A stretch of 64,000 nucleotides of DNA. Origin: an uncultured Bacteroidia bacterium. GTDB taxonomy: Bacteria > Bacteroidota > Bacteroidia > Bacteroidales > UBA932. Every line of letters starts with the position of its first letter. The stretch's first letter is position 1. Below the pieces are notes generated by a model. That model was given only the letters and a program-made list of their open reading frames with translations, had not been told where the DNA came from and searched no databases. A program made the translations under genes and the position numbers. This document shows positions 8,974 through 35,271 of the stretch, piece after piece. The stretch spans positions 1 through 64,000 of the forward strand of contig CACZHP010000008.1 in assembly GCA_902780935.1 (NCBI GenBank), given 5' to 3'.

Positions 8974-9858
8974 ATGGCCACAAGTTCAGTTTTAAAAGAG
9001 ATAACCCCGCTCTCAGACAAAGATTGCCTGTACATCGTGGAGCGTCACAAGTCTGAGTTCCTCTTCCCCCTCCACTCGCACAGGGAATATGAGCTCAATT
9101 TCATCGAGAACGGGAAGGGAGTCCTGCGTGTCGTCGGGGACAGCGTCGAGGAGATCGGCCCGTACGAGCTGACCCTCGTCGCCGGCAATGAGCTCGAGCA
9201 CGCGTGGGAGCAGGGAAGCTGTGTCGAGGGCGACGTAAGGGAAATCACAATCCAGTTCTCTCCGGATCTTTTCCCGCCCGACCTTCTGAACAAAAGCCAG
9301 TTCTCCTCGATAAGCAAGATGCTCTCGAAAGCCAGCCACGGGCTTAATTTCTCAGTCCGTACGATCATGCGGGTCTATTCCTATCTTGATTCCTTGTCCT
9401 CTGTGACAGAGCCGTTTAACCAGTATCTCAATTTCCTGAAGATTCTCTATGAGCTGTCCCAGGACGAGGAGGCCAGGATCCTGGCGAGCAGCTCTTTCGC
9501 CCGCGCTTCCAGGGATAAGGAGAGCCGCAGGGTGATGAAGGTCAAGCAATATGTCAACGACCACTACTCCGAGGATCTGCGACTGGAATCCCTTGCCTCG
9601 TTGGCGGGGATGACCCCTCAGGCGTTCAGCCGTTTCTTCAAGTCACGGACTGGCCGCACCCTGAGCGACTACATAATAGACATCCGTCTGGGCAACGCCG
9701 CGAGGCTCCTTGTGGACACCACCCAGAACGTCTCTGAGATATGTTATAGCTGCGGCTTCAACAACCTGTCCAACTTCAATCGTATTTTCAAGGCCAAAAG
9801 GGGATACACCCCGAGGGATTTCCGCGCTCTGTTCAAGAAAAAGCGGGTCTTTGTCTAG
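8974..9858 (+). CDS. AraC family transcriptional regulator, probable PUL regulator
   Basis: 294 aa from ATG 8974; an in-frame GTG at 8941 would give 11 more residues but sits inside the apparent promoter. The N-terminal half is a cupin-like sensor domain (HSHREYELNFIENGKG, ELTLVAGNELEH), expected to bind a small sugar. The C-terminal about 100 residues form two helix-turn-helix motifs of the AraC/XylS type: LESLASLAGMTPQAFSRFFKS and SEICYSCGFNNLSNFNRIFKAK, ending GYTPRDFR. Most PULs use hybrid two-component sensors, SusR-like or ECF sigma/anti-sigma regulators; an AraC protein alone is less common. It lies directly upstream of the mannanase/SusC operon in the same direction and shares an 11-bp motif with that operon's promoter. 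Confidence 0.9.
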   Translation: MATSSVLKEITPLSDKDCLYIVERHKSEFLFPLHSHREYELNFIENGKGVLRVVGDSVEEIGPYELTLVAGNELEHAWEQGSCVEGDVREITIQFSPDLFPPDLLNKSQFSSISKMLSKASHGLNFSVRTIMRVYSYLDSLSSVTEPFNQYLNFLKILYELSQDEEARILASSSFARASRDKESRRVMKVKQYVNDHYSEDLRLESLASLAGMTPQAFSRFFKSRTGRTLSDYIIDIRLGNAARLLVDTTQNVSEICYSCGFNNLSNFNRIFKAKRGYTPRDFRALFKKKRVFV

Positions 9859-9864
9859 CGGGTT

Positions 9865-9875
9865 AAAATAGTATC
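9865..9875 (+). repeat. AAAATAGTATC motif, copy 2 (upstream of PUL promoter)
   Basis: Second copy of the 11-mer found at 8944-8954. It ends 20 bp upstream of the -33 element of the PUL promoter (9895), a position suited to an activator binding next to RNA polymerase. Confidence 0.5.
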
Positions 9876-9894
9876 GGTTTTTGCTAATTTTGTA

Positions 9895-9926
9895 TTTGTC
9901 GGCTCTGACGAATACATATAATTTTG
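9895..9926 (+). promoter_or_regulatory. Promoter of the mannan/xyloglucan PUL operon
   Basis: TTTG (9895-9898), 20 bp, then TAATTTTG (9919-9926): a full match to the Bacteroidota -33/-7 pattern TTTG ... TAnnTTTG with the expected spacing. It predicts a leader of about 24 bases before the mannanase ATG at 9955. A second TAATTTTG at 9885-9892 lacks a properly spaced -33 box. Confidence 0.75.
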
Positions 9927-9954
9927 CAATCGACACTAACTCTGTTTGGCCAAC

Positions 9955-11217
9955 ATGAAGTTGAATATCAATCTGGTCGCCCTTGCGGCCATCCTCATTC
10001 TTGCCGCTGGTTGCTCCCGGCAGGCAGGTTTTACCACTGTCAAAGACGGTCATTTCGAACGTGACGGACGTGTCCAGAAGTTCATGGGCACCAATTTCTG
10101 GTATGGCCCCATCATCGCCTCTGAAGGACGAGGAGGCGACCAGGCCCGACTCACTCGTGAGCTGGATGCACTGAAGGAACTCGGTCTTGTCAATCTGAGG
10201 GTCCTTGTCGGAGGCGATGGCCCGGACGGAGTATTCTCCCGCGTGGATCCAACCCTCCAGACCGCTCCCGGAGTCTATAACGACACCCTCCTGGTCGGAT
10301 TGGACCGTTTACTGGTCGAGCTTGGTAAAAGAGACATGCAGGCTGTCCTGTACCTGAACAACTCCTGGGAGTGGTCCGGCGGCTACGGCCAGTATCTCGA
10401 GTGGGGTACGGGTGAGAAGGCACTTCTTCCCCTGGTTGACGGCTATTGGCCTTTCATGCAGCAGATGAGGAAGTTCCAGACTTCCGAACCCGCACAGAAA
10501 CTCTTTTATAATCACGTGCGCGCGATTGTGGGTAGGAAAAATTCCATCACCGGAAAGCCATATAAGGACGATCCCGCCATTTTCTCCTGGCAGATCGGCA
10601 ATGAGCCCCGCTGCTTTTCCGACGACCCGGAGATCCGTGACGGTTTCATCAGTTGGATGACAGAGACCGCACGTATTATTAAGGAAATTGATCCCAACCA
10701 TCTTCTCTCGACCGGCAACGAGGGACTCATGGGATGCGAGGGTGATCCCGCCCTTCTGGAAAGGGTCAACTCCATTCCGGGCGTGGATTACATGACAATA
10801 CACATCTGGCCGTACAACTGGAGCTGGGCCAAGGCCGAGAGCCTCGCCGAGGATCTCGACAGCGCTATCGCGAAGACCGATGAATATGTCCAGCAACATG
10901 CGGAACTCGCTGGACGACTGGGACTTCCGCTTGTCCTTGAGGAATTCGGTTTCCCGAGGGACGGTTTCTCCGACAGCCGGGAGGCCACAACCACATGCCG
11001 CGACAAATATTACTCCCATGTCCTCGGAATGGTGGCGTCCGGAAAGCTGGACGGCATGAATTTCTGGGGCTGGAGCGGTTACGCCAATCCCGCCCACTCC
11101 CAGTGGGAACCAGGGGATGATTACACTGGCGACCCCGCCCAGGAGGCCCAAGGACTCAACGGAGTCTATATCACTGATACTACCATAGACATTATCAAGC
11201 AAACTCAAATATATTAA
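9955..11217 (+). CDS. GH5 family endo-beta-1,4-mannanase lipoprotein (GH5_7-like)
   Basis: 420 aa from ATG 9955. Signal peptide with lipobox LAAGC (Cys20) followed by SRQ; expected at the cell surface or in the periplasm. Single catalytic TIM barrel of GH5: FMGTNFWYG at the start of the barrel and NLRVLVGG. Acid/base Glu217 is in SWQIGNEPR and nucleophile Glu330 in LVLEEFG; HIWPYNW follows the fold of subfamily 7, which is made of endo-mannanases cutting beta-1,4-mannan or glucomannan internally. First gene of the PUL operon, 17 bp before susC; unusual in that an enzyme gene precedes susC. Confidence 0.88.
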   Translation: MKLNINLVALAAILILAAGCSRQAGFTTVKDGHFERDGRVQKFMGTNFWYGPIIASEGRGGDQARLTRELDALKELGLVNLRVLVGGDGPDGVFSRVDPTLQTAPGVYNDTLLVGLDRLLVELGKRDMQAVLYLNNSWEWSGGYGQYLEWGTGEKALLPLVDGYWPFMQQMRKFQTSEPAQKLFYNHVRAIVGRKNSITGKPYKDDPAIFSWQIGNEPRCFSDDPEIRDGFISWMTETARIIKEIDPNHLLSTGNEGLMGCEGDPALLERVNSIPGVDYMTIHIWPYNWSWAKAESLAEDLDSAIAKTDEYVQQHAELAGRLGLPLVLEEFGFPRDGFSDSREATTTCRDKYYSHVLGMVASGKLDGMNFWGWSGYANPAHSQWEPGDDYTGDPAQEAQGLNGVYITDTTIDIIKQTQIY

Positions 11218-11234
11218 CAAACAAAGTGAATAGC

Positions 11235-14200
11235 ATGAAACACAAGCTGTTAACCTTCATGCTGGCGCTTTTCGCCTCTGCCGCCGCACTGACCGCCCAG
11301 GTCAAGGTGACAGGTGTCGTCAAGGACGATACCGGGCAAGGGGTGATCGGAGCCAGTGTCATGGAGAAAGGCACCACCAACGGTGCCGTCACAGACCTTG
11401 ATGGAAATTATGTGATCACGGTGAAGCAAGGCGCTACGCTCGTGTTCTCTTCCATCGGCTACGCTACTCAGGAGATCCCTGTCGGAGGCCGTACGGTCAT
11501 CGACGTTCTCCTTAAGGAAGATGCCGAGTTCCTCGACGAGGTTGTCGTCGTCGGATACGGTACTATGAAAAGGAGCGACCTCTCAGGCGCCTCCGTCTCT
11601 ATGAAGGAGGAGGATCTGAAGGGATCGATCATCACCAACCTCGACCAGTCCCTGCAGGGTAGGGCGGCCGGAGTCTCTGCTGTCCAGACTTCTGGAGCTC
11701 CCGGCTCATCCTCATCCATCCGTGTCCGTGGACAGGCGACTGTCAACGCCAACGCTGAGCCTCTCTACGTTATCGACGGTGTGATCGTCCAGGGCGGAGG
11801 CAACTCGGGAAGCGATTTCGGTCTCGGTGGCCTCGGAAACGGTAAGGTCTCCACGATCTCCCCGCTGTCCACCATCAACCCTGCCGACATCGTCTCGATG
11901 GAGATCCTGAAGGACGCCTCGGCGACAGCGATCTACGGAGCGCAGGGCGCCAACGGTGTCGTCCTCATCACCACCAAGCACGGTAAGGCCGGCGAGGCGA
12001 AGTTCTCCTATGACGGAATGCTCGCCATGAGCCGCCAGACCAGCAGGATCGACATGATGAACCTGCGGGAATTCGCTGAATATTACAACGATATGGCCGC
12101 TATCGGCGAGGTCGAGGCAAACGCCTACTACGCCGATCCTTCCATCCTCGGAAAGGGAACCAACTGGCAGGACGAGGTCTTCCGCACCGCTCTCCAGCAC
12201 CAGCACCAGATCAGCGCCCAGGGCGGTACCGAGAAGGTCCAGTACTATGTCTCCGGTTCATACATGAACCAGGAGGGAACCATTATCGGCTCTAACTTCG
12301 ACCGCGTGTCTTTCCGCTCCAACCTGGACGCCCAGCTCAAGGATTGGTTCAAACTCGGTCTGAACGCCACCTACGCTGTCACCAATGATAACGTGAAGCT
12401 CGCAGATGGTCAGGAGGGTGTCATTTTCTACTCTCTCTCGACCCTGCCCGACATCCCGGTATATGACCTCGACGGCAATTATTCCACTACGGTCCGCGAG
12501 GGTTACACCTCCGCCAACCCCGTGGCTCTTGCCATGTTGGATGAGAACCTCCTCAAGAGGCAGAAACTCACCGGAAATGTCTATGCCGAGCTGACCCCCG
12601 TGAAGCATTTTGTTTTCCGTAGCGAGGTCGGTTTCGACGTGAGCAACTCCGAGGCCACCACTTACAAACCCAAGGTTGACCTTGGCGGCTGGCAGAGGGG
12701 TAACAACTCCATGAGCCAGCAGCGCAACGCCAGCAACTATATCTCCTTCAAGAACTACCTGACCTATTCCAACACCTTCGGCAAGCACAACGTGACAGCC
12801 ATGGTCGGTCAGGAGGCTTGGGAGTCGAAGTGGAATTATCTTGGCGCCACCAACACCGGCCTGCCTTCAGATGACATCCACAACATCCGTCTCGCTACCG
12901 GCACTCCTACCCTGAACTCCGGTTTCGGAAGCTCGGCCATGGCTTCGTTCTTCACCCGCGAGACCTATAATTACAACGACAGGTACCTCTTCACCTACAC
13001 CTTCCGTTACGATGGTTCCTCGAACTTCGGCCCGGATAACCGTTGGGCCGGCTTCCACTCCTTCGCGGGCAGCTGGAGGTTCACCAACGAGGAGTTCCTC
13101 AAGGACTTCACCAACTCCATCGGGATGAATAGCGGTAAGATCCGTGTCGGTTGGGGCCAGACCGGCAACGCCAACATCGGCTCCGGAGCCTGGGAGTCCG
13201 GCATGTCCAAGATGCCCAGCGCCCTTGGTGACAGCCAGCGTCCGGCGAATATCGCCAACACCGGTATCCACTGGGAGAAACAGCGCCAGACCAACCTGGG
13301 TTTGGACCTGAGCTTCCTTGACAGCAGGATCAACCTCACCGTCGATCTCTACAAGAAGATATCTTCCGACATGCTGATGTCGATGACCCTTCCTTCATAT
13401 ATGGGAACCCAGGGTAACGGATCCTCCGCTCTCGCGGCTCCTAAGGGCAACTACGGAACGATCGAGAACAAGGGTCTTGAGATCACCCTCGACACCCACC
13501 CGGTCCAGACCAAGGATTTCGCATGGAACAGCAACTTCCAGATCTCCTTCAACCGCAACAAGCTTGTCGCCCTTGACGGCAGCGCCAACGCCCAGCTGAT
13601 CGGTTACGGCCAGTGGAGCGACATTGTCTCCGTGACCGAGATCGGCCAGCCGCTCTACGGCTTCTACGGCTATGTTGTCGAAGGTGTCTATAAAGACTTT
13701 GATGATATCCAGAACTCACCCCGCGCTGAGAAATATCCTTCCGACGGTGTGTTCAACAGGTACACGACAGTGTGGCCGGGCGACATCAAGTTCAAGGATG
13801 TCAACGGCGACAATGTCATCAACGAGCTCGACCGCACCAACATCGGCTCTCCGCTTCCCAAGTTCACTTTCGGTTGGACCAACTCCTTTACCTATAAGAA
13901 CTTCGACATGTCGATATTCGTCAACGGCTCCTACGGCAACAAGGTCCTCAACTATAACCTCATGGGCCAGGGCTACAATGGTCTTGTCCACATGAACAGT
14001 GTCTGGACCAACCAGCACACCTTGATCGCCGACAGGGCTCGTTTCGAGGTCATCGACGCCCAGAAGACTTACACTGACGGTTCATCCTGGATGGATGACG
14101 TGACTAATGTCAAGGTTTCCAATTCCGGAACCAAGACCCCTCGTCCGAGTCTTTCCGACCCTAACGACAACGACCGCATGAGCGACCGTTACATCGAGGA

Positions 14201-14453
14201 TGGCAGCTATCTGAGGATCAAGAATATAAGCCTTGGTTACACCTTCCCCAAGAAGCTTCTCACAAAGGTGAAAGTGGACAATTTCAGGGTGTACTGCAAC
14301 ATCCAGAACCTCTACACCTTCACCAAGTACCGCGGCTACGATCCCGAGGTCGGCGCGTCGACCCAGGATTCCACCGGTCTTACCTTCGGAGTCGATAACG
14401 GACGTTATCCTTCTCCTATGACTTGCTCATTCGGTGTCAATCTCACTTTCTAA
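11235..14453 (+). CDS. susC: SusC-type TonB-dependent glycan transporter (PUL 1)
   Basis: 1072 aa from ATG 11235 (MKHKLLTFMLALFASAAALTAQ signal peptide); an in-frame GTG lies nine bases earlier. Domain order: signal; carboxypeptidase-D-like regulatory domain (about residues 24-105, VTGVVKDDTGQGVIGASV); SusC signature DEVVVVGYGTMKRSDLSG; TonB plug (about 115-230, with LQGRAAGV, IRVRGQATV, PLYVIDGV and the AIYGAQGANGVVLITTK end motif); 22-strand outer-membrane barrel ending in a terminal Phe (VNLTF). Imports oligosaccharides with TonB energy, capped by the SusD lipoprotein encoded 16 bp downstream. From its neighbours the cargo should be manno- or gluco-oligosaccharides. Confidence 0.95.
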   Translation: MKHKLLTFMLALFASAAALTAQVKVTGVVKDDTGQGVIGASVMEKGTTNGAVTDLDGNYVITVKQGATLVFSSIGYATQEIPVGGRTVIDVLLKEDAEFLDEVVVVGYGTMKRSDLSGASVSMKEEDLKGSIITNLDQSLQGRAAGVSAVQTSGAPGSSSSIRVRGQATVNANAEPLYVIDGVIVQGGGNSGSDFGLGGLGNGKVSTISPLSTINPADIVSMEILKDASATAIYGAQGANGVVLITTKHGKAGEAKFSYDGMLAMSRQTSRIDMMNLREFAEYYNDMAAIGEVEANAYYADPSILGKGTNWQDEVFRTALQHQHQISAQGGTEKVQYYVSGSYMNQEGTIIGSNFDRVSFRSNLDAQLKDWFKLGLNATYAVTNDNVKLADGQEGVIFYSLSTLPDIPVYDLDGNYSTTVREGYTSANPVALAMLDENLLKRQKLTGNVYAELTPVKHFVFRSEVGFDVSNSEATTYKPKVDLGGWQRGNNSMSQQRNASNYISFKNYLTYSNTFGKHNVTAMVGQEAWESKWNYLGATNTGLPSDDIHNIRLATGTPTLNSGFGSSAMASFFTRETYNYNDRYLFTYTFRYDGSSNFGPDNRWAGFHSFAGSWRFTNEEFLKDFTNSIGMNSGKIRVGWGQTGNANIGSGAWESGMSKMPSALGDSQRPANIANTGIHWEKQRQTNLGLDLSFLDSRINLTVDLYKKISSDMLMSMTLPSYMGTQGNGSSALAAPKGNYGTIENKGLEITLDTHPVQTKDFAWNSNFQISFNRNKLVALDGSANAQLIGYGQWSDIVSVTEIGQPLYGFYGYVVEGVYKDFDDIQNSPRAEKYPSDGVFNRYTTVWPGDIKFKDVNGDNVINELDRTNIGSPLPKFTFGWTNSFTYKNFDMSIFVNGSYGNKVLNYNLMGQGYNGLVHMNSVWTNQHTLIADRARFEVIDAQKTYTDGSSWMDDVTNVKVSNSGTKTPRPSLSDPNDNDRMSDRYIEDGSYLRIKNISLGYTFPKKLLTKVKVDNFRVYCNIQNLYTFTKYRGYDPEVGASTQDSTGLTFGVDNGRYPSPMTCSFGVNLTF

Positions 14454-14469
14454 AATGGAGGGCAATAGA

Positions 14470-16251: not shown

Positions 16252-16262
16252 TACGCCGAACA

Positions 16263-17585: not shown

Positions 17586-17590
17586 TCTAT

Positions 17591-17596: not shown

Positions 17597-17604
17597 AACA
17601 GAAC

Positions 17605-20010: not shown

Positions 20011-20018
20011 TTTTTATT

Positions 20019-20044: not shown

Positions 20045-20065
20045 GATCCAATTTATATTCATTCA

Positions 20066-24209: not shown

Positions 24210-25369
24210 CATACGAAGAGAGATTGAAGTGGCTGAAGGAGACTCATGAGGATCTTCTCGGCAGGAAAAACGTCCCGATCGAGGGGAACGGTGTATTGGA
24301 GAGATATGAGAATCCTGTCTTGACGGCGGCACACGCCCCGCTGGAGTGGCGCTACGACCTCCACAAGGAGACGAATCCCTTCCTGATGGAGAGGTTCGGG
24401 ATCCATGCGACCATGAATTCCGGAGCGATCAAGTTCGACGGTAAGTACATCCTTGTCGTGAGGGTTGAGGGTGCCGACCGCAAGTCTTTCTTCGCCGTGG
24501 CGGAGAGCCCCAATGGGGTGGACAATTTCCGTTTCTGGCCCCACCCGGTCACAATGCCGGAATATGGCGAGCCTGCCACGAATGTCTATGACATGCGCCT
24601 GACCGCCCACGAGGACGGTTGGATCTACGGCATCTTCTGCGTCGAGCGTAAGGATTCCGGCCGCCCCGACGACCTCTCCGCCGCTGTTGCCTGCGCCGGT
24701 GTCGCCCGCACGAAGGATCTCGTGAGCTGGGAGAGGCTCCCAGACATCGTCTCTTCCCACCAGCAGCGCAATGTCGTGCTTCACCCGGAGTTCGTGGACG
24801 GGAAATATGCCCTCTACACCCGCCCGCAGGACGGTTTCATCGATGCCGGGAACGGCCCCGGGATAGGCTGGGCTCTTGTGGACAGCATGGAGCATGCCGT
24901 CATCGGCGATGAGAAGGTCTTGAGCCGTAGGCGCTACCACACCATCATGGAATGCAAGAACGGGGAGGGCCCCCATCCCATCAAGACCTCCAAGGGCTGG
25001 CTTCACCTTGCCCATGGCGTGCGCGGCTGCGCTTCCGGACTCCGCTATGTGCTGTACATGTACATGACTTCCCTGGAAGATCCTTCCGAGGTGATAGCCG
25101 AGCCTGCCGGATTCCTTCTGGCTCCGGAGGGTGGGGAATATGTCGGCGACGTGATGAATGTGCTCTTCACCAACGGCTGGATCTGCGATCCGGACGGAAA
25201 GGTGTTCCTCTATTACGCATCTTCCGACACGCGGATGCATGTGGCCACCTCGACTGTGGACCGGCTGGTGGACTACTGCCTTAACACGGCTCCCGACGGT
25301 CTTAGGACTGGCGCGTCTGTCGAGACCCTCAACAAGTTGATTGACAGTAACGCGGATGTAGTCCTGTGA
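24206..25369 (+). CDS. 4-O-beta-D-mannosyl-D-glucose phosphorylase (GH130_1)
   Basis: 387 aa, no signal peptide, cytosolic. GH130 beta-propeller of the subfamily 1 type: [18 protein letters not shown] helix, [20 protein letters not shown], then [28 protein letters not shown] and [17 protein letters not shown], and the late [21 protein letters not shown]. Known GH130_1 enzymes convert mannosyl-beta-1,4-glucose plus phosphate to alpha-mannose-1-phosphate and glucose; the substrate is made from mannobiose by cellobiose 2-epimerase, encoded at 32640. The four-base ATGA overlap with the GH26 gene indicates translational coupling. The epimerase is separated from it here by three glycosidase genes. 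Confidence 0.92.
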
Positions 25370-28167
25370 TGCGAGTAAGAAGAATAATCCCGCTTCTGTG
25401 CGCGGCCTCGCTGACCTTCCAGGCCTGCGTGGTCAAAGACTATAAGGTCAAAGGGGACACTGTGCTTGTCGACAGGGCAGGAGTGTCTGTCCGTCTGCAG
25501 GTCGTCTCTCCGGAAATAATAAGGGTCAATGCGGTACCCGCCGGCGCCAAGTTCACTGACAGGAAGAGCCTGGTGGTCGTGCCGCAGGAAGGAAAGACAT
25601 CCTTTGACGTCACTTCGGAAGGCGGCAGCGTGTATGTCCGAACCGGCGAGCTTACGGCTTATCTCGCCGCGGACGGTTCGCTTGGCTTCCTCGACTCGGA
25701 GGGCAATCTTCTGGCCGGAGATGGCAAGATGTCTTTCTCTGGGGCAGAGGTTGAGGGAAAGAAGGGCTACTCGGTGTTGACCAGGTTCCCTTCCGGCTCC
25801 GGAGAGTCTTTCTACGGCCTTGGCCAGCACCAGGCCGGGGAGTTCGACCATAAGGGCAGGAGCGAGGAACTCTTCCAGTACAACACCAAGGTCAGTGTGC
25901 CTTTCGTGGTCTCCACGAAGGGTTACGGCGTTCTTTTTGACGCCTATTCGTTGTCCCGCTGGGGCAATCCTGAGCCTTACGGGCAGCTTGGCGAGATGTT
26001 CAAGCTCTATGACAAAGAAGGTGTCGAGGGAGCCTTGACCGGCACCTACAAGACCAAGGACGGGAAGACCTTGGTGAGACGTGAGGACTCCCTTTATTTC
26101 GAGAACGAGTTCGCAATAAAGAACCTTCCGGAGATTCCCCTCAATGGGGCCAAGGTCGTTTATGAGGGCTATCTTCAGGCTTCGGAAACAGCTGAGTATC
26201 ATTTTATACAGTATTATGCGGGATTCCAGGCAACCTGTATTGACGGAAAAGAAGTGATGCCGCGTCTCTGGCGTCCGGCCTGGAACCCCAACAGCAAGAA
26301 ATTCTCGGCCCTGTTGGAAAAGGGAAAGAAGACCCCGATAAGAATTGAATGGGATCCTGACGGAGATGTCTCCTACATGGGACTTAGGGTAGCGGCCCTG
26401 CAGACTCCCCAGGAGGAGAATACCCTCAGTTTCTGGTCCGAATTCGAGCCCGGGGTGGATTTCTATTTCATAGCTGGAGGGAACTACGACGGAGTCATCC
26501 GGGGCTACCGCACCTTGACCGGCAAGGCCCAGGTGATGCCCAAGTGGGCTATGGGCTTCTGGCAGAGCAGGGAGCGCTACTCCACCCAGGAAGACCTCGT
26601 CCAGACCCTCGCCGAGATGCGCCGCAGACATATTCCAGTGGATAATATAGTCCAGGACTGGCAGTATTGGAAAGAAGATCAGTGGGGGAGCCATCAGTTT
26701 GATCCTGAACGGTATCCGGATCCGGAGAAGATGCTCGACGATGTCCACGGGATGAACGCCAGGTTCATGATCAGCGTCTGGCCGAAGTTCTACACCAACA
26801 CCGACAATTACAAAGAGCTGAAAGCCGCTGGGTACGCCTATACCCATGCCGAGGAGGACAGCCTTAAAGATTGGCTCGGCTACAAGCAGACCTTCTACGA
26901 CGCCTATTCCGAGGGCGGCCGCAAGATGTTCTGGAGGCAGATGGACGAGAACCTGTATTCAAAATACGGCAGGAAGATCGACGCCTGGTGGATGGATGCC
27001 AGTGAGCCGAACCTTCGGGACTGCCTCCCGATGGATTACTTCAAATGGTTGCTGACTCCCAACGCTTTAGGTTCTTCGACTGAATATCTCAACGCCTATG
27101 CCCTTGTCAACGCCGACGCCATCTACACCGGTCAGAGGAACGTGGATCCTGACAAAAGGGTTTTCCTTCTGACCCGAAATGGTTTCGCCGGGCTCCAGAG
27201 ATATTCCACGGCCACCTGGAGCGGAGACATCGGCACCTCGTGGAACGACATGAGGATACAGATGCCCGCCGGGCTCAATTATTCAATGAGCGGCATCCCG
27301 TTCTGGGGGATGGACATCGGCGGTTTCTCGGTGATGGGTAAGTTCTACGACGAGGCCAACGCCGAGGAATGGCGTGAGCTTCAGACCCGCTGGCACCAGT
27401 TCGGCACCTTCGTGCCGCTTTTCAGGACCCATGGCCAGTGGCCCCGCAGGGAGCTTTGGAATATAGCTCCGGAGGGCTCCCAGGCCTATGAGAGCATCCT
27501 TTGGTACATGAGGCTGCGTTACAGGCTGATGCCGTATCTGTACTCGCTTGCCGGAGCCGTCCATTTCGAAGATTACACCCTGATGCGGGGGCTCCCGATG
27601 GACTTCCCGGACGATCCCGCCGTTCGGGACTTGTCCGACCAGTGGATGTTCGGCCCTGCCTTCATGCCCTGTCCGGTCTCTGAATATAAAGCCAGAAGCC
27701 GTGAGGTTTATTTCCCCGATGGCGGATGGTATGATTTCTATTCCGGAGCATATATTCCTGGAAACCAAACACTTACCGTGGCGGCTCTTTACGAGCGGAT
27801 GCCGCTTTATGTCCGTGCCGGCTCGATAATACCCTTTGGCCCGGAGATGGAGTGGTCGGACGAGAAACCCGCCGCCGACATCCGCCTGTACGTCTATGCA
27901 GGCGCTGACGCCTCCTTCACCCTCTACGAGGATGACGGCTTGACCTACGGCTACGAGAAAGGCGCTTTCTCCACGATTCCCATTGTCTGGGATGAGTCTT
28001 CCAGGACCCTGACCATAGGCGAGCGGAGCGGATCCTTCACGGAAATGCTCTCTTCACGCCGCTTCACCGTTGTCCTCGCTGATCCTTCGCACCCTCATCC
28101 GTATGACCCGGACGCTGACGGCCAGACAGTTGAATACAGTGGAACTGAGGTGACTTTAAATCTTTGA
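25369..28167 (+). CDS. GH31 alpha-xylosidase-like enzyme with PA14 insert, lipoprotein
   Basis: 932 aa from ATG 25369, which overlaps the previous stop (TGATG). Lipobox LTFQAC gives a membrane anchor. Domains: GH31 N-terminal beta-sandwich; a PA14-like insert at about residues 240-345 (VVYEGYLQASETAEYHFIQYYAG); catalytic TIM barrel with nucleophile Asp543 in WWMDASEPN and acid/base Asp620 in TWSGDIGTSW; C-terminal beta domains. The PA14 insert at this position is known from bacterial GH31 alpha-xylosidases acting on xyloglucan oligosaccharides, the best match for the function; alpha-glucosidase is the alternative. It sits between genes of the mannan pathway, which have no use for an alpha-xylosidase. 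Confidence 0.85.
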   Translation: MRVRRIIPLLCAASLTFQACVVKDYKVKGDTVLVDRAGVSVRLQVVSPEIIRVNAVPAGAKFTDRKSLVVVPQEGKTSFDVTSEGGSVYVRTGELTAYLAADGSLGFLDSEGNLLAGDGKMSFSGAEVEGKKGYSVLTRFPSGSGESFYGLGQHQAGEFDHKGRSEELFQYNTKVSVPFVVSTKGYGVLFDAYSLSRWGNPEPYGQLGEMFKLYDKEGVEGALTGTYKTKDGKTLVRREDSLYFENEFAIKNLPEIPLNGAKVVYEGYLQASETAEYHFIQYYAGFQATCIDGKEVMPRLWRPAWNPNSKKFSALLEKGKKTPIRIEWDPDGDVSYMGLRVAALQTPQEENTLSFWSEFEPGVDFYFIAGGNYDGVIRGYRTLTGKAQVMPKWAMGFWQSRERYSTQEDLVQTLAEMRRRHIPVDNIVQDWQYWKEDQWGSHQFDPERYPDPEKMLDDVHGMNARFMISVWPKFYTNTDNYKELKAAGYAYTHAEEDSLKDWLGYKQTFYDAYSEGGRKMFWRQMDENLYSKYGRKIDAWWMDASEPNLRDCLPMDYFKWLLTPNALGSSTEYLNAYALVNADAIYTGQRNVDPDKRVFLLTRNGFAGLQRYSTATWSGDIGTSWNDMRIQMPAGLNYSMSGIPFWGMDIGGFSVMGKFYDEANAEEWRELQTRWHQFGTFVPLFRTHGQWPRRELWNIAPEGSQAYESILWYMRLRYRLMPYLYSLAGAVHFEDYTLMRGLPMDFPDDPAVRDLSDQWMFGPAFMPCPVSEYKARSREVYFPDGGWYDFYSGAYIPGNQTLTVAALYERMPLYVRAGSIIPFGPEMEWSDEKPAADIRLYVYAGADASFTLYEDDGLTYGYEKGAFSTIPIVWDESSRTLTIGERSGSFTEMLSSRRFTVVLADPSHPHPYDPDADGQTVEYSGTEVTLNL

Positions 28168-28169
28168 GT

Positions 28170-30281
28170 ATGAGAAAATCGCTCATCATTGTCCTCTGCC
28201 TTTCGTTTTCCTTATGCCTTCAGGCGCAGGAGACCCTTTTCGACGACGGCTGGAAGTTCGCTTTCGGTGACGCGTCATCTCCCGCGAAGGACTTCGGCCG
28301 GGGAACCGAGTATTTCAACTATTTCACAAAGGCCGCCTCGATCCACAACGAAGGCCCGTATTCGCCAAAGTTTGATGATTCCGCCTGGAAGGAAGTGAAC
28401 CTTCCCCACGACTGGGTCGTGGATCTTCCCTTCGACCCTAAGGCCAGTCACAGCCACGGCTACAAGACCGTCGGGTGGGCATATCCCAAGACCAGCGTTG
28501 GCTGGTACCGCAAGACTTTCTCCATTCCTTCGGAGGCTAAAGGAAAGCCCGTTTCCATCCGTTTCGACGGGATATTCCGTGACTCTGACATCTGGGTCAA
28601 CGGATTCTGGCTCGGTGGAGAGAAAAGCGGCTACACGTCAGCCACTTACGACATCGCTCCTTATCTTGAATACGGCGGGGAGAATATTGTGGCAGTCCGC
28701 GCTGACGCCACCTTTGAGGAAGGATGGTTCTATGAGGGTGCCGGAATATACCGCCATGTGTGGCTGACTATCGGCGAGCCTTCAGGGAAGCCTTCCTTGA
28801 GACTTCCCAAGATTGAGACCGATCCTGACAAAGGGATCCTGATTGACGGTATCCCCGTCAAGCTTCGGGGCTGCAACCTCCATCAGGACCATGCCGGAGT
28901 CGGAGCCGCGATCCCTGACGCCCTTTATGAATATCGTGTCCGGGAACTCAAGAAATACGGGTTCAACGCTATCAGGACCTCCCACAATCCCGCTTCTCCG
29001 GCCTTGCTGGACATCTGCGACTCTCTCGGGATGTATGTTATTGAAGAGACGAGACTGATGGGGATCAATGACGCCCAGCTCGAGCCTCTTAAGAAGATGA
29101 TTGAGAGGGACAAACATCATCCCTGCATAATCATGTGGGGCATCGGCAACGAGGAATGGGGGATCGAGTGGAAGAGCAAGGGAGAGGACATCGCCCGGAT
29201 TATGACAGAGTTTTGCCATGAGATCGATCCCACCAGGCCGGTTGTCGTGGCTACCAGTAGCGGCCCTGAGGTTATAAAGGGTACTGACGTGGCCGGCTAT
29301 AATTACATAATCCAGAATCCTATTGACGAGCATAGGGCGGCTTTCCCTTCAAGAGTTGCTGTAGGCACGGAAGAGACATCCGGCTGCGGCACCAGGGGAG
29401 TGTATTTCGATGATATCGAGAATGGCCGTATGGCTGCCATAAACCGCGGCCCGCAGGGCCCGGACAGCCTGTACAACTGCATAGAGAGGGGACTGAAGTT
29501 CTATGGCGAACGCCCCTGGCTGGCCGGACTCTTCTACTGGACCGGTTTTGACTATCGTGGAGAGCCGAACCCGCTCTCATATCCCGCTACCGGCTCCGAG
29601 TTTGGAATCCTTGACTACTGCGGTTTCCCCAAGGATGAGGCCTTCTACCTCAAGTCATGGTGGACGGAAGAGCCTGTTCTCCATATACTTCCGCATTGGA
29701 ATCTCTCCGGCCATGAGGGAGAGGAGATCCCGGTCTGGGTCTATAGCAACTGCGACGAGGTCTCCCTTACGGTCAACGGCAGGAACCTTGGCAGGAAGAA
29801 GATGCCACGTCTAGGCCACCTGGAGTGGAAGGCCATCTACAAGCCAGGTGTCGTCAAGGCTGTTGGTTACAAGAACGGGAAAAAGGTCGCTGAGGAAGTC
29901 GTCCGCACTGCGGGCGAACCTTCAATGTTGGAGATAAATCCCGACAGGACAACGATTTCCGCCGACGGTAGGGATCTGTCGGTTGTCAACGTCTCGGTAA
30001 AAGACTCCCGGGGTACCTTCGTCCCAACGGCCTGTGTACCGGTCACCATCACTGTCAGCGGCCCTGTCAGGATCCTCGGTGCCGGCAACGGCGACCCGGC
30101 ATTCCGCTCCAAGGAGCGCCCGGAGGATCCTTCCGCCCGTTCATTCACGATAGACACCTTCAATGGTTTGGCTCAGTTTATGATGCAAAGTTCCGGCGGT
30201 GCCGGTGAGGCCTCCGTGACCTTGACTTCGGCCGGAGGCATAACTCCCGCGGAGGTTCGAATCAAACTTGTGAATAAGTAA
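28170..30281 (+). CDS. GH2 beta-galactosidase-like enzyme lacking the second Ig-like domain
   Basis: 703 aa from ATG 28170 (signal MRKSLIIVLCLSFSLCLQAQ). The N-terminal sugar-binding domain (VNLPHDWVVD, VGWYRKTF, GIYRHVWLTI) is intact, as is the TIM barrel: acid/base Glu328 in GIGNEEW and probable nucleophile Glu401 in VGTEETSG; the C-terminus has DUF4982-like and Ig-like domains. Between VWLTIGEP (about residue 200) and PDKGILIDGIPVKLRGCN (about 222) only about 20 residues remain where relatives have an Ig-like domain of about 110 residues. The frame is intact, so it looks like an in-frame domain loss, not a pseudogene. In a xyloglucan scheme it would remove galactose from side chains; beta-mannosidase is an alternative. 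Confidence 0.85.
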   Translation: MRKSLIIVLCLSFSLCLQAQETLFDDGWKFAFGDASSPAKDFGRGTEYFNYFTKAASIHNEGPYSPKFDDSAWKEVNLPHDWVVDLPFDPKASHSHGYKTVGWAYPKTSVGWYRKTFSIPSEAKGKPVSIRFDGIFRDSDIWVNGFWLGGEKSGYTSATYDIAPYLEYGGENIVAVRADATFEEGWFYEGAGIYRHVWLTIGEPSGKPSLRLPKIETDPDKGILIDGIPVKLRGCNLHQDHAGVGAAIPDALYEYRVRELKKYGFNAIRTSHNPASPALLDICDSLGMYVIEETRLMGINDAQLEPLKKMIERDKHHPCIIMWGIGNEEWGIEWKSKGEDIARIMTEFCHEIDPTRPVVVATSSGPEVIKGTDVAGYNYIIQNPIDEHRAAFPSRVAVGTEETSGCGTRGVYFDDIENGRMAAINRGPQGPDSLYNCIERGLKFYGERPWLAGLFYWTGFDYRGEPNPLSYPATGSEFGILDYCGFPKDEAFYLKSWWTEEPVLHILPHWNLSGHEGEEIPVWVYSNCDEVSLTVNGRNLGRKKMPRLGHLEWKAIYKPGVVKAVGYKNGKKVAEEVVRTAGEPSMLEINPDRTTISADGRDLSVVNVSVKDSRGTFVPTACVPVTITVSGPVRILGAGNGDPAFRSKERPEDPSARSFTIDTFNGLAQFMMQSSGGAGEASVTLTSAGGITPAEVRIKLVNK

Positions 30282-30293
30282 TATCAATTGATT

Positions 30294-32636
30294 ATGAATA
30301 ACTTGAAAAAATCATTAATGGTTGTAGCGATGGCAAGTGCGGTTATCACATCATGCTCCCAAGGCGGGAAGGTCAATCCCGCCATTCCCTCGGACCCGGA
30401 AGTCGAGGCGAAGGTTGAGTCGGTCCTCAAGAAAATGTCCCTCAAGGAGAAAGCCGGACAGATGGTCCAGCTCTCCATCGACACCATCACGAATGACACC
30501 ATCCCGGCGATCGATCCCGCAAAGTTGGAAAAGATCATAGGGGAGTACAAGGTGGGATCTATCCTGAACCTTCTCAAGGACGTGTCGCTTTCCAGGGAGG
30601 GAACCGCCGCTTTTGTGAAGCAGATTCAGGACAAGTCCATGGAACTGATCGGAATCCCTTGCATCTATGGCTTGGACATGATCCACGGCGCTTCCTATCT
30701 CACGGACGGATCCCTTTACCCGCAGGAAATCAATCTGGGAGCCACTTTCAACAGGGAATATCCCCGGATGATGGGCGAGGCACTCGCTTATGAGACAAGG
30801 GCGGCCCAGGTGGGCTGGGTCTTCTCTCCGGTCATGGATCTCGGACGTGACCCCCGCTGGCCGAGGCATTGGGAGAGTTGGGGAGAGGATCCCTATCTCC
30901 AGGCTGAGATGGCCCGCACCGAGGTTAAGGCGATCCAGGGAGACGATCCAAACCATGTCGACCTTGAGCACGCCGCTGTCAGCATCAAGCATTTCCTAGG
31001 CTATGGGGTGCCGCACACCGGCAAGGACCGCACCCCGGCGTATATCGCTCTTAATGATTTGAGGGAGAAATATTTCCGTCCCTTCAAGGAGTGTTTCCAG
31101 GCAGGTGCCCTGACCACCATGATCAACTCCGCCTCTATCAACGGCGTCCCGACCCATGCCAACAAGGAGCTGCTGACAGGTTGGGTCAAGGAGGAACTCA
31201 ATTGGGACGGTCTTATTGTGACGGATTGGGCTGACGTCAACAATCTCTACACCAGGGACCATGTCGCCGCTGACAAACGTGAGGCGGTTGCCATGGGAAT
31301 CAACGCTGGTATTGATATGATCATGGAACCTTATGACCCTGAGTGTGTTAATATAATCGTCGATCTTGCTGAGTCCGGTGAGATCCCGATGTCGAGGATC
31401 GACGACGCGGTCCGCAGGATCCTCAGGCTCAAGGTCCGTCTCGGCCTCTTCGACAACCCTTCATGGAATCACGAGTATAAGGACTTCGGCTGCGAGCGTT
31501 TCGCCAAGGAGTCTTACGCCGCCGCTCTTGAGTCGGAAGTCCTTCTCAAAAACGAAGGCGGGATACTCCCGTTAAAGGGTACCGAGAAGATCCTTGTGAC
31601 CGGCCCCAACGCCAACTCGATGAGGACTCTTAACGGCGGCTGGAGCTACACCTGGCAGGGAGACGCCGACCGGTTCGCCTCGGATCATAACACCATCCTC
31701 GAGGCTATCCGGAACCGTTTCCCGAATGTAAAGTATGTCCCCGCGATTGAATATGACCAGCAGTGGGGTGAGTGGCAGAAGGAATATGTGACCGGCATCA
31801 ATGAGGCTGTCGCCGCGGCCAGGACCTGCGATGTGGTTATAGCCTGCGTCGGCGAGAACACCTATTGCGAGACTCCCGGCAATATGGACGACCTCAATCT
31901 GTCCTCCAACCAGAAAGACCTCGTGAAGGCTCTCGCGGCCACCGGTAAGCCGATCATCCTTGTACTGAATGAAGGACGCCCGAGAATAATAGGCGACATA
32001 GAGCCTCTGGTGAAAGCCGTTGTGGATGTGATGCTTCCTTCCAATTATGGAGGTGACGCCCTCGCCGCCCTCCTTTCCGGCGACGAGAACTTTTCCGGAA
32101 AGCTTCCGTTCACATATTCAAAGCATATCAACTCTCTCCATACCTACGACTACAAAGTCTCCGAGCATAATGAGACAATGGCGGGCTCATACAATTATGA
32201 CGCTATCATGGATGTCCAGTGGCCTTTCGGTCACGGCCTGAGCTACACCACCTTTGGCTATTCCGACCTCAAGGTCGTCATCCCCGGCTCGACTGGGGAT
32301 CCCACCGCCTTCAGCGCCGGCGACGTCCTTAAAGTCTCCGTCAAAGTCTCCAACACCGGCCCCCGGGCCGGCAAGGAAGCGGTCCTGCTCTACAGCTCTG
32401 ACCTTGTCGCCTCCCTCATTCCTGACGTGAAGAGGCTTCGTGGTTTCGAGAAGATATCCCTCGAACCCGGCGAGTCGAAAGTCGTCGAGTTCGAGTTGCC
32501 CGCCAAGGAGCTCGCCTTCGTCGGAGCCGACGGGAAATGGCGCCTTGAGAAGGGTGACTTCCGAATCTCTTGTGGAGGCCAGGCGGCTATGATCAAGTGC
32601 CTTGAGACCAAGGTTTGGGAAACGCCCAATATCTAG
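30294..32636 (+). CDS. GH3 beta-glucosidase, lipoprotein
   Basis: 780 aa from ATG 30294; an in-frame TTG two codons earlier is unlikely. Lipobox VITSC follows the signal. Three-domain GH3: N-terminal barrel (MSLKEKAGQMVQLS, GIPCIYGLDMIHG, FSPVMDLGRDPRWPRHWESWGEDP) with nucleophile Asp311 in VTDWAD; alpha/beta sandwich (NEGGILPLKG, GENTYCETPGNMDDL); and a fibronectin-III-like end (VSNTGPRAGKEAVLLY). The periplasmic or surface location suggests it trims beta-1,4-glucosyl units from gluco-oligosaccharides of xyloglucan or glucomannan. Family members also include xylosidases, but KHFLGYGVPHTGKDR is of the beta-glucosidase group. Confidence 0.9.
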   Translation: MNNLKKSLMVVAMASAVITSCSQGGKVNPAIPSDPEVEAKVESVLKKMSLKEKAGQMVQLSIDTITNDTIPAIDPAKLEKIIGEYKVGSILNLLKDVSLSREGTAAFVKQIQDKSMELIGIPCIYGLDMIHGASYLTDGSLYPQEINLGATFNREYPRMMGEALAYETRAAQVGWVFSPVMDLGRDPRWPRHWESWGEDPYLQAEMARTEVKAIQGDDPNHVDLEHAAVSIKHFLGYGVPHTGKDRTPAYIALNDLREKYFRPFKECFQAGALTTMINSASINGVPTHANKELLTGWVKEELNWDGLIVTDWADVNNLYTRDHVAADKREAVAMGINAGIDMIMEPYDPECVNIIVDLAESGEIPMSRIDDAVRRILRLKVRLGLFDNPSWNHEYKDFGCERFAKESYAAALESEVLLKNEGGILPLKGTEKILVTGPNANSMRTLNGGWSYTWQGDADRFASDHNTILEAIRNRFPNVKYVPAIEYDQQWGEWQKEYVTGINEAVAAARTCDVVIACVGENTYCETPGNMDDLNLSSNQKDLVKALAATGKPIILVLNEGRPRIIGDIEPLVKAVVDVMLPSNYGGDALAALLSGDENFSGKLPFTYSKHINSLHTYDYKVSEHNETMAGSYNYDAIMDVQWPFGHGLSYTTFGYSDLKVVIPGSTGDPTAFSAGDVLKVSVKVSNTGPRAGKEAVLLYSSDLVASLIPDVKRLRGFEKISLEPGESKVVEFELPAKELAFVGADGKWRLEKGDFRISCGGQAAMIKCLETKVWETPNI

Positions 32637-32639
32637 GCC

Positions 32640-33848: not shown

Positions 33849-33861
33849 TTTCTTACATTCG
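33831..33861 (+). promoter_or_regulatory. Internal promoter for the sugar transporter gene
   Basis: TTG (33831-33833), 20 bp, TACATTCG (33854-33861): matches the Bacteroidota pattern, inside the 3' end of the epimerase gene. Transcription would start within a few bases of the transporter ATG (33868), giving an almost leaderless message. Confidence 0.5.
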
Positions 33862-33867
33862 CGTATT

Positions 33868-35271
33868 ATGGCAAAGATATCAGAGAAAATAGGTTATGGA
33901 TTAGGGGACATGTCGTCCTCGATGTTCTGGAAGATATTCTCTTATTATCTTCCGATTTTTTATTCGGACGTTTTCGGCCTGAAGCCTGTCCATGCGGCTA
34001 CCCTGCTGGGAGTCACGAGGTTATACGACGCTGTCTCCGACCCGGTCATGGGAATCATCGCCGACCGCACCCAGACCCGGTGGGGGAAATACCGCCCGTA
34101 CCTTCTCTGGCTGGCGATCCCCTTCGCCCTTATCGGCATCATGGCCTTCTATGTCCCTGACGCCTCCTATGGAGTGAAGCATTTCTATGCCTATGTCGCC
34201 TATATCCTGATGATGACGGCCTACACCGCCGTCAATGTGCCTTACGGTGCCATGCTGGGGGTTGTCACGGCCGACTCAAAGGAGAAGAGCGTGTTCTCCT
34301 CCTTCAGGATGTTCTTCGCCTACATCGGCAGTTTCATCGCCATGGGGATATTCTGGCTATTTGAGAAATCCATCATCGGTTCCACGAACTCCGCCGGCAA
34401 GGTGATCAAGGGAGTCGGGGATGCGGATCCCATGCAGTGGACCTCAATCGTGGCGGTGGTGGCCGTCCTCTGCGCGATCCTCTTCGTGCTGTGCTTCCTT
34501 ATGACCAAGGAGCATGTCAAGATCGAGAGAAAATCCCAGGAAGCCGGGGGCTCGTCCATAAAAGACGACCTCAAGGCCCTCGTGTCCAACGGCCCCTGGT
34601 GGCTGATGCTGGGCGCTGCCATTGGCCAGCTACTATGCGGCTCGATTCGTGGAGGCGCAGCCGCTTACTATTTCGCCAATATATTGGGAGCCAACATATT
34701 CCTGACCTGTGCGGTCTATCTTACGATAGGGGAGATCGGCCAGATGGCCGGTGTCGCCTTCGCAGTCCCGCTCTCTGAGAAGATAGGGAAGAGGAACACA
34801 TTCATGGCAGCTATGGCCGCTGTCGTGCTGTTCAGCTCGGCGATATGGTTCATCCCGACCGGCACCGCCGCCGGTATCTGGTGGCTGATAGTCCTTCAGA
34901 TCCTTGTCAGTCTCGCCATAGGCGTGGCCGCTCCTCTGACCTGGAGCATGTTTGCCGATGTGGCGGACTATTCTGAGCTCAGAAACGGTTCCAACTCAAC
35001 TGGTTTGATATTCTCATCGTCCTCCATGGCGCAGAAGTTCGGCGGAGCCATCGGCGGCTTCCTCCTGCTCGCTCTCCTCGGGGCCTTCGGATATAACAAG
35101 GATCTGGCGCTCCAGGCTCCCAGAACGCTTGATGCTATCAAGGCGATGATGAGTTTCGTTCCCGCTATCGGAGCGGCGCTCTCAATCCTGGCGCTCTCGT
35201 TCTATCCTCTTACCACAAGTAAGATGAACGAGGTCCAGGCGGAGCTGAAGAAGAAGAGGGGAGAGGCTTAA
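33868..35271 (+). CDS. GPH-type (MFS) sugar:cation symporter
   Basis: 467 aa, about twelve transmembrane helices, glycoside-pentoside-hexuronide symporter family. It opens KISEKIGYGLGDMSSSMFWK, the GPH signature, with DAVSDPVMGIIADRTQTRWGKYRPYLLW as the conserved cytoplasmic loop and FADVADYSELRNG later in the chain. Probably brings mannobiose or related disaccharides from periplasm to cytosol for the epimerase and GH130 phosphorylase; the same pairing is found in Bacteroides fragilis. Last gene of the PUL, 19 bp after the epimerase, with a possible own promoter. It converges on the TlpA-like gene with a 6-bp gap and no obvious terminator. Confidence 0.92.
   Translation: MAKISEKIGYGLGDMSSSMFWKIFSYYLPIFYSDVFGLKPVHAATLLGVTRLYDAVSDPVMGIIADRTQTRWGKYRPYLLWLAIPFALIGIMAFYVPDASYGVKHFYAYVAYILMMTAYTAVNVPYGAMLGVVTADSKEKSVFSSFRMFFAYIGSFIAMGIFWLFEKSIIGSTNSAGKVIKGVGDADPMQWTSIVAVVAVLCAILFVLCFLMTKEHVKIERKSQEAGGSSIKDDLKALVSNGPWWLMLGAAIGQLLCGSIRGGAAAYYFANILGANIFLTCAVYLTIGEIGQMAGVAFAVPLSEKIGKRNTFMAAMAAVVLFSSAIWFIPTGTAAGIWWLIVLQILVSLAIGVAAPLTWSMFADVADYSELRNGSNSTGLIFSSSSMAQKFGGAIGGFLLLALLGAFGYNKDLALQAPRTLDAIKAMMSFVPAIGAALSILALSFYPLTTSKMNEVQAELKKKRGEA

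What the first reader, a model, noticed from the sequence alone, without database searches (positions are those of the whole stretch)
8974..35271. A single PUL that appears to combine beta-mannan and xyloglucan degradation
The mannan route is complete (GH5_7-like, two GH26, GH130_1, cellobiose 2-epimerase, GPH transporter). Interleaved with it are GH5_4-like, GH31 with PA14 insert, GH2 and GH3, which match the xyloglucan toolkit, and an SGBP-B-like protein. GH31, GH2 and GH3 split the phosphorylase gene from its epimerase partner, as if a xyloglucan cassette was inserted into a B. fragilis-like mannan operon. Both polymers occur together in plant primary walls. A GH36/GH27 alpha-galactosidase is absent from the window.
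Basis: partly seen in the sequence, partly recalled or inferred. Interest (0 to 1): 0.8.

Follow-up and report, generated by a model that had tools for sequence, protein, structure and literature searches.

The report
Glucomannan operon carrying xyloglucan side-chain enzymes
An uncultured gut (probably rumen) bacterium appears to read the genes for eating one plant-wall fibre, glucomannan, and for trimming the side chains of a second, xyloglucan, as one unit, an arrangement that some of its relatives share, although nobody has yet tested what it really eats.

Summary
In detail: a tight 15-gene, one-strand cluster (8941/8974-35271) encodes an AraC regulator, SusC/D, two binding-type proteins, GH5_7-like, two GH26, GH5_4-like, GH130, GH31, GH2, GH3, epimerase and GPH transporter. 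GH31 is an ortholog of the xyloglucan alpha-xylosidase BoGH31A (1171 bits; catalytic Asp pair and both proposed ligand-binding Trp kept), and in the family a xylulokinase match lies near GH31 in 10 of 15 GH31-linked GH130 loci and in 0 of 25 unlinked. But GH5_4, the SGBP-B-like protein and GH3 are not xyloglucan markers: they occur in mannan loci without GH31 or in the characterised glucomannan locus PUL219, and the GH5_4 falls with AC2aCel5A (trace xyloglucan activity), apart from 11 of 11 GH5_4s of GH31 loci without mannan genes. Best reading: a glucomannan PUL into which a xyloglucan-debranching module was built, mainly once, in uncultured, mostly ruminant-gut Bacteroidales; nine other genomes of the window's genus lack it at this place. 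Whether the cell cuts polymeric xyloglucan is open. New variant of a known kind. Bolder reading not excluded: one locus for two look-alike hemicelluloses of eudicot primary walls, xyloglucan and beta-galactoglucomannan.

The parts
8941..9858 (+). AraC-type regulator (first ATG at 8974)
   Evidence: HTH_18/HTH_AraC; AraC matches of 59-98% identity stand before GH5_7 in loci with and without GH31
9895..9926 (+). promoter-like site TTTG-N20-TAATTTTG, the only + strand match between 8900 and 35400
   Evidence: identical in G212, pattern also met in G207 and G247, not in G129 (near match) or G084, nor in 13 other heads scanned. Consensus recalled
9946..11217 (+). GH5_7-like beta-mannosidase/mannanase, lipoprotein-like N-terminus
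   Evidence: 1uuq 318 bits, 4lyp exo-beta-1,4-mannosidase 218 bits; subfamily label recalled
11226..14453 (+). SusC-like TonB-dependent transporter
   Evidence: TIGR04056 932 bits
14434..16251 (+). SusD-like glycan-binding lipoprotein
   Evidence: PF07980, PF14322
16263..17585 (+). SGBP-B-like lipoprotein; nearest solved is PbSGBP-B
   Evidence: PF18329 151 bits; 6d2y 325 bits, BACOVA_02650 5e7g 50 bits
17605..20010 (+). second surface-binding-type lipoprotein: chain of TIG/Ig-like beads with a duplicated C-terminal domain
   Evidence: PF01833; low-accuracy model loosely resembles mixed-linkage-glucan SGBP-B 6e57
20066..21511 (+). BACON + GH26 endo-beta-mannanase, surface-lipoprotein-like
   Evidence: PF13004, PF02156; 6d2x 440 bits; RPFHE and TLGECG motifs
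21513..23108 (+). BACON + GH5_4-like endo-beta-1,4-glucanase of the AC2aCel5A/6wqy type
   Evidence: subfamily by similarity to AC2aCel5A, not by CAZy
23115..24209 (+). GH26 beta-mannanase, lipoprotein-like, probably periplasmic
   Evidence: 4zxo 342 bits; RPWHE and CLSETG motifs
24206..25369 (+). GH130 4-O-beta-mannosyl-glucose phosphorylase, no signal peptide
   Evidence: 3was 648 bits
25366..28167 (+). GH31 alpha-xylosidase with PA14-type insert (BoGH31A ortholog); ATG at 25369
   Evidence: 5jou 1171 bits; D544, D621, W306, W503 conserved
28164..30281 (+). GH2 beta-galactosidase, short form without the PF00703 Ig-like domain
   Evidence: GalA 848 bits; domain list
30288..32636 (+). GH3 beta-glucosidase (BoGH3B-like), lipoprotein-like
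   Evidence: 5jp0 959 bits
32640..33848 (+). mannobiose/cellobiose 2-epimerase (EpiA-like), no signal peptide
   Evidence: NF041848 270 bits, PF07221
33868..35271 (+). GPH-family inner-membrane sugar symporter
   Evidence: TIGR00792 335 bits, above cut-off

Best explanation
It is a glucomannan-utilisation operon that also carries a periplasmic xyloglucan side-chain module. Inferred route: surface GH26 and GH5_4 cut glucomannan and unsubstituted beta-1,4-glucan; SusC/D imports the pieces. In the periplasm GH26 and GH5_7 shorten the mannan part; GH31 removes alpha-1,6-xylose and GH2 beta-galactose from xyloglucan oligosaccharides; GH3 then removes glucose from the bared backbone and from glucomannan ends. 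The GPH carrier takes Man-Man and Glc-Man type disaccharides to the cytosol, where epimerase and GH130 yield mannose-1-phosphate and glucose. Xylose goes to xylose isomerase and xylulokinase encoded elsewhere in the genome. One AraC-type regulator and one promoter probably serve both substrates. Shown here by sequence: gene content, order, tight spacing, family placement, conservation. Inferred: localisation, substrates, co-transcription.
For: GH31 is 522 of 931 identical to BoGH31A; nucleophile and acid/base Asp, and the two Trp that a structure paper proposes to bind xyloglucan oligosaccharides, are kept in the window and in 42 of 42 linked GH31 rows (38 different). In sister operons of the family the module stands behind GH130 together with xylulokinase-, xylose isomerase- and XylE-type genes: XylB match in 10 of 15 GH31-linked GH130 loci and 0 of 25 unlinked. 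The genome has its own XylA-XylB pair on C12. 40 of the 44 rows in the window's fork of the GH31 tree are linked. This is the genome's only BoGH31A-type GH31, the next match being 35% identical. The core resembles PUL219, shown on glucomannan. Single + strand promoter match and ORF overlaps.
Against: No enzyme or transcript was tested. GH5_4, the only GH5 above Pfam's cut-off in the genome (no GH9 match), groups with AC2aCel5A, which has only trace xyloglucan activity, and shares most of its long beta3-alpha3 loop; so the cell may lack an endo-xyloglucanase. No fucosidase or arabinofuranosidase lies in the operon. The GH2 is not the type usual beside GH31 in the order: that other type matches in 15 of 39 order-level stretches, the window's in 2. 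In 8 of the 15 linked loci no GH5_4 and no SGBP match lies on the stretch, so there the unit is no complete PUL. The promoter pattern is missing in 13 other heads scanned.
Confidence: 0.7

Rival explanations
1. The operon is for mannans only. GH2, GH3 and GH31 trim decorated glucomannans, for example beta-galactoglucomannan, whose side chains are beta-Gal-(1,2)-alpha-Gal; GH31 would act on alpha-galactose.
For: beta-GGM has an alternating Glc-Man backbone and beta-1,2-Gal-alpha-1,6-Gal branches, so GH2, GH3, GH5_7 and GH26 would all find bonds to cut; no alpha-galactosidase of the two families sought is in the operon.
Against: GH31 is 56% identical to a proven alpha-xylosidase with the residues checked kept; GH36- and GH27-type genes exist elsewhere in the genome; xylose genes travel with GH31.
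Confidence: 0.12
2. Stronger form of the best explanation, not exclusive of it: a true double-polymer locus in which the surface GH5_4 also cuts polymeric xyloglucan and the SusC/D-SGBP set imports its oligosaccharides.
For: GH5_4 is polyspecific; a Segatella copri GH26|GH5_4 from a glucomannan PUL cuts glucomannan, xyloglucan, mixed-linkage glucan and arabinoxylan; no other GH5 above the cut-off and no GH9 match in the genome.
Against: Characterised relative AC2aCel5A has only trace xyloglucan activity, blamed on the loop that the window largely shares; the loop is 9-13 residues in GH31-linked loci and 9-12 in loci without GH31, against 5 in GH31 loci without mannan genes; the same SGBP occurs in loci without GH31.
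Confidence: 0.3
3. Two neighbouring transcription units with unrelated substrates, brought together by chance.
For: Gene content of the GH31 module varies between relatives, and two GH31s of the fork (L016, L038) have no GH130 on their stretch.
Against: Overlapping ORFs across the GH130/GH31 and GH31/GH2 borders; no second promoter match; conservation in two genera of the family sample.
Confidence: 0.05

Closest known systems
PUL219, acetylated-glucomannan locus of a digester Bacteroidales (PMC6643232; sections 9 and 13 read)
   Same: SusC/D, GH5 endoglucanase, two GH26, GH130, GH3, 2-epimerase, MFS carrier; GH26s, GH5 and GH3 shown active on mannans, CMC and a beta-glucoside (its GH130 showed no activity in the assays)
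   Different: No GH31 or GH2 named; has a CE6 esterase (the window has none; sister operons have a SASA-type esterase)
Bacteroides ovatus xyloglucan locus (BoXyGUL; passages of PMC4967831 seen)
   Same: BoGH31A-type GH31 with PA14 domain, BoGH3B-type GH3, an SGBP with the XBD Pfam domain
   Different: BoGH5A-type GH5_4, GH43 pair; no mannan genes; regulator type differs (last two recalled)
Segatella copri BgF5_2/Bg0019 PUL 7 and PUL 8 (PMC12704710; abstract, part 1 of section 5 and section 7 read)
   Same: GH26 and GH5_4 together in a glucomannan locus with GH130, EpiA adjacent; GH5_7 next door; multi-substrate action shown
   Different: GH26|GH5_4 fused in one protein; CE7; no GH31/GH2/GH3 module named; its GH26B lacks the catalytic Glu, whereas both window GH26 keep the motifs
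Segatella copri DSM18205 xyloglucan system (PMC11784079; passages seen)
   Same: GH31 and GH2 co-regulated for xyloglucan
   Different: GH31/GH2 in a cluster apart from the core PUL; no growth on beta-mannans
Moose-rumen Prevotella mannan PUL (PMC6784887; passages seen)
   Same: GH5_4 plus GH26, GH130, epimerase, GPH; authors call it multiple-substrate-targeting
   Different: No xyloglucan side-chain enzymes named in the passages seen
S. bryantii TF1-3 loci (PMC11107044; passages seen)
   Same: Same enzyme families overall: GH5/GH26/GH130 and GH2/GH5/GH31
   Different: Two separate predicted PULs, not one operon

Membership tests
Polysaccharide utilisation locus (PUL) | SusC/SusD pair with co-directional CAZymes | tested here: met
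Glucomannan/beta-mannan PUL of the GH130 route | GH26 mannanases, mannosyl-glucose phosphorylase, 2-epimerase, GPH carrier in one operon | tested here: met
Glucomannan/beta-mannan PUL of the GH130 route | growth on or induction by glucomannan | not testable with these tools
   no culture or transcript data
Xyloglucan PUL (XyGUL) | GH31 alpha-xylosidase of the BoGH31A type | tested here: met
Xyloglucan PUL (XyGUL) | endo-xyloglucanase GH5_4 of the type found in Bacteroidales GH31 loci without mannan genes (short beta3-alpha3 loop) | tested here: not met
   loop 13 against 5 in 11 of 11; separate clade 100/100
Xyloglucan PUL (XyGUL) | SGBP-B specific to xyloglucan | tested here: inconclusive
   PF18329 met but nearest is PbSGBP-B, and the same SGBP matches in 11 of 25 GH130 loci without GH31
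Xyloglucan PUL (XyGUL) | side-chain beta-galactosidase | tested here: inconclusive
   GH2 present, GalA-like at 848 of 900 cut-off bits; not the GH2 type usual beside GH31 in the order
GH5_4 xyloglucanase | activity on polymeric xyloglucan | not testable with these tools
   AlphaFold model has the deciding loop (its residues 119-127) below pLDDT 50

The most novel reading that the evidence does not exclude
A locus built for the pair of look-alike hemicelluloses of eudicot primary walls, xyloglucan and beta-galactoglucomannan, with shared enzymes: one GH2 takes the beta-1,2-galactose cap off both, one GH3 takes glucose off both backbones, GH31 opens xyloglucan, GH5_7/GH26/GH130 finish the Glc-Man repeats, and one AraC-type regulator lets either polymer prepare the cell for the other.
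Probability: 0.22. Interest if true: 0.72.

Novelty: new variant of a known kind. Interest (0 to 1): 0.52.

Why it matters
PULs are usually read as one locus, one glycan, and substrates are assigned to uncultured gut bacteria on that rule (general knowledge). Here an operon kept in many gut, mostly ruminant, Bacteroidales breaks it, so automatic calls of 'mannan' or 'xyloglucan' for such loci would each be half wrong. The case also gives a natural contrast, species of one genus with and without the module behind a similar AraC-GH5_7-SusC head, to test whether co-occurrence of polymers in the plant wall selects for joint regulation in the bacterium.

Tried and rejected
Rejected: GH5_4, SGBP-B and GH3 as xyloglucan markers. 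Left out as untested: mapping BoGH5A Trp252 onto the window; the BoGH5A sequence was not obtained, so I make no claim on that residue. Rejected: a clean one-step insertion, because epimerase and GPH also change order and the module varies (GH3 alone in L139, GH31 alone in L015, GH31+GH3 in L014, GH31+GH2+GH3 in the window). Led nowhere: paper searches (no paper with all six terms; the last matched unrelated 'pulse' papers); the GH44 search in the own genome has no ringing control, so it shows nothing; the AlphaFold model of GH5_4 is unsure just where the cleft is decided; the TIG-protein model gives only a loose match to mixed-linkage-glucan SGBP-B (TM below 0.3). Not done: a search for fucosidases, GH74, GH43 or XylE in the own genome; 11 of the 52 family genomes with a GH130 match were not fetched; of the 60 genomes outside the family with a GH31 match, 39 were fetched; CAZy subfamilies were not assigned by CAZy's own tools.
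Full report
What is there. The window lies in a 3.05 Mb, 97%-complete assembly. From 8941 to 35271 fifteen genes run on the + strand with gaps of at most 87 bases and several overlaps. Families: AraC regulator, GH5_7-like, SusC, SusD, SGBP_B_XBD protein, TIG protein, BACON-GH26, BACON-GH5_4, GH26, GH130, GH31, GH2, GH3, 2-epimerase, GPH symporter. N-termini, judged by eye and not by a predictor, look lipidated for GH5_7, SusD, SGBP, TIG, both GH26, GH5_4, GH31 and GH3, secreted for SusC and GH2, and without signal for GH130 and epimerase.

GH31 is the strong xyloglucan witness. It scores 1171 bits against BoGH31A and 869 and 793 against the next two solved alpha-xylosidases; the other solved GH31s reach 270 or less. 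In an alignment of 137 rows (window, BoGH31A, 135 relatives) the nucleophile and acid/base Asp are invariant. The PA14 Trp and the catalytic-domain Trp, which flank a bound buffer molecule in BoGH31A and are proposed to bind xyloglucan oligosaccharides (passages, PMC4967831), are present in 42 of 42 GH31s whose stretch also holds GH130 (38 different; window included), and in 91 and 89 of the 94 others (numbering matched by shifting one residue so that the nucleophile falls on Asp553). It is the only such GH31 in the genome; the next match is 35% identical.

The mannan side is a known kit. GH130 matches mannosyl-glucose phosphorylase at 648 bits. The set GH5 endoglucanase, two GH26, GH130, GH3, epimerase, carrier, SusC/D is that of PUL219, whose GH26s act on gluco- and galactomannan, whose GH5 acts on CMC and a cellobioside and whose GH3 is a beta-glucosidase; its GH130 showed no activity in the assays (sections 9 and 13 of PMC6643232). 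So GH5 and GH3 need no xyloglucan to explain them.

GH5_4 is not of the type seen in GH31 loci without mannan genes. By phmmer it is nearest 6wqy (380 bits) and AC2aCel5A, 4yhe (342), then a xyloglucanase, 2jep (189), and further down BoGH5A, 3zmr (179). In a tree of 43 rows (shorter than 300 residues and duplicates dropped) the 11 GH5_4s from GH31 loci without GH130 form one clade (100/100), and the window, 21 other GH5_4s from GH130+GH31 loci, 8 from GH130 loci without GH31 and the two solved proteins form the other side. The stretch from the His motif to the next Trp is 5 residues in 11 of 11 of the first group, 13 in the window, 9-13 in the other 21, 9-12 in the 8, 9 in 6wqy and 16 in AC2aCel5A. 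The AC2aCel5A paper reports only trace xyloglucan activity and blames the beta3-alpha3 loop (passages, PMC4488959). The genome has no other GH5 above Pfam's cut-off and no GH9 match; two weak GH16 matches exist. A model of the domain is unsure exactly at that loop.

Comparative anatomy. One scan of genome contigs with the window GH31 kept the best 80 of 334 loci, so these lean to close relatives; the nearest show the order GH26-GH5_4-GH26-GH130-GH31-(GH2)-GH3-epimerase-GPH. A GH130 search of 249 genomes of the window's family found 52 with a match, the window's included; I fetched stretches of 40 others and left 11 unfetched. GH31 lies within 3.1 kb behind GH130 in 15 of these 40: 4 of the 13 fetched from the window's genus (5 of 14 with the window) and 11 of 13 from genus g16; some stretches end at contig ends (one g16 stretch 580 bases behind GH130), so the count is a lower bound. 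Nine genomes of the window's genus have GH26-GH130-GPH with no GH31; one of them, G041, has a GH31 on another contig, far from the window's in the tree. In g16 the module often holds also a SASA-type esterase, in some a GH43, and xylulokinase, xylose isomerase and XylE matches. Isomerase and XylE were named by NCBIfam in L022 (a linked locus) and L021; xylulokinase was named in L021 only (304 bits, below its 380 cut-off) and is 69-72% identical to that in the linked loci. XylB matches in 10 of the 15 linked loci and 0 of the 25 unlinked, four of which have under 3 kb behind GH130. That is evidence, independent of GH31's own sequence, that this module yields xylose. In 8 of the 15 linked loci no GH5_4 and no SGBP match lies on the stretch: there the unit looks like a processing operon, not a whole PUL. 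The window's genome keeps xylose isomerase and xylulokinase on C12.

Origin. In the GH31 tree (136 rows, 132 different, 42 labelled linked, label = GH130 anywhere on the fetched stretch) the window sits in a fork of 44 rows of which 40 are linked; of the 4 others two (L042, L057) are contigs of 3.5-3.6 kb that cannot show it, and two (L016, L038) lack GH130 on their stretch. The fork's support is 92, that of the next larger set (48 rows, 40 linked) 95. The two linked rows outside are Prevotella KH2C16 (L080), where a mannan operon adjoins GH31-GH2, and G516 (L201), where it is a neighbouring unit. So one main origin and perhaps two separate approaches. The GH130 tree (65 rows, 61 different) also clusters the linked rows, with the base unresolved; one row there, L159, was labelled linked through a 28% GH31 hit and should be unlinked. 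Of 60 genomes outside the family with a GH31 match I fetched 39; 38 of these stretches have no GH130. Direction of change is not proven: of the 14 loci fetched from other genera of the family, 5 show GH130-GPH-epimerase, so epimerase and carrier order also differ.

Regulation. The Bacteroidetes-type pattern TTTG-N19-21-TAnnTTTG (recalled consensus) occurs 3 times in the window against 0.12 expected; one, 9895-9926, is between the AraC gene and GH5_7 and is the only + strand match from 8900 to 35400. It is identical in G212; the pattern is also met at that place in G207 (no GH31) and G247, nearly so in G129, not in G084, and not in 13 other heads scanned, one of them a duplicate. The locus without GH31 in G207 and those with it in G212, G129, G084 and G247 share the head AraC-GH5_7-SusC, so the module most likely came under the mannan regulator.

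Bolder reading. Eudicot primary walls contain beta-galactoglucomannan, with alternating Glc-Man backbone and beta-Gal-(1,2)-alpha-Gal-(1,6) branches, described as related in structure and function to xyloglucan (abstract of PMC10735049; passages of PMC9614514). The operon's GH2 and GH3 could serve both polymers. The alpha-galactosidase step would have to come from GH27- or GH36-type genes elsewhere. This is inference only.

Novelty. In the listings no title or shown abstract names a GH31 inside a GH130 mannan operon. Of the eleven papers opened I saw abstracts, passages or sections, not whole texts, and PULDB could not be searched, so absence from print is not shown.

Noticed in passing
window 28164-30281: The GH2 has no PF00703 Ig-like domain match between the sugar-binding and TIM-barrel domains, in a protein of 705 aa; four relatives looked at (L009, L010, L011, L022) have hits of 2061-2115 bases.
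   Followed up: partly
window 9870-9926: Upstream of the promoter-like site, the stretch AATAGTATC...TAATTTTGTATTTG is shared with G212, largely with G129 and in part with G207, G247 and G084 and may be the AraC-type operator.
   Followed up: partly
window 17605-20010: The TIG-bead protein ends in a duplicated domain of about 110 residues (WEG...YxNNxELGGEDDWVN...GHW) with no Pfam or PDB sequence match; possible new glycan-binding module.
   Followed up: partly
window 53642-61623: A second SusC/SusD pair followed by a 298-aa protein without Pfam match and a GH127-type protein.
   Followed up: no
window 46277-48976 (-): GH2-type protein with exo-beta-glucosaminidase/mannosidase Ig domains, outside the operon.
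   Followed up: no
L021, L046, L047: GH31 near the window's clade, followed in L021 by xylulokinase, xylose isomerase and XylE with no match to the window's SusC/D; L046 and L047 show ORFs of similar sizes in the same place.
   Followed up: partly
L080: In Prevotella sp. KH2C16 mannan genes (GH26-GH130-GPH-epimerase-AraC) directly adjoin GH31-GH2: a second, separate meeting of the two toolkits.
   Followed up: partly
G000 whole genome: Fourteen GH92 matches over the cut-off in a 3 Mb genome, suggesting strong alpha-mannoside use.
   Followed up: no
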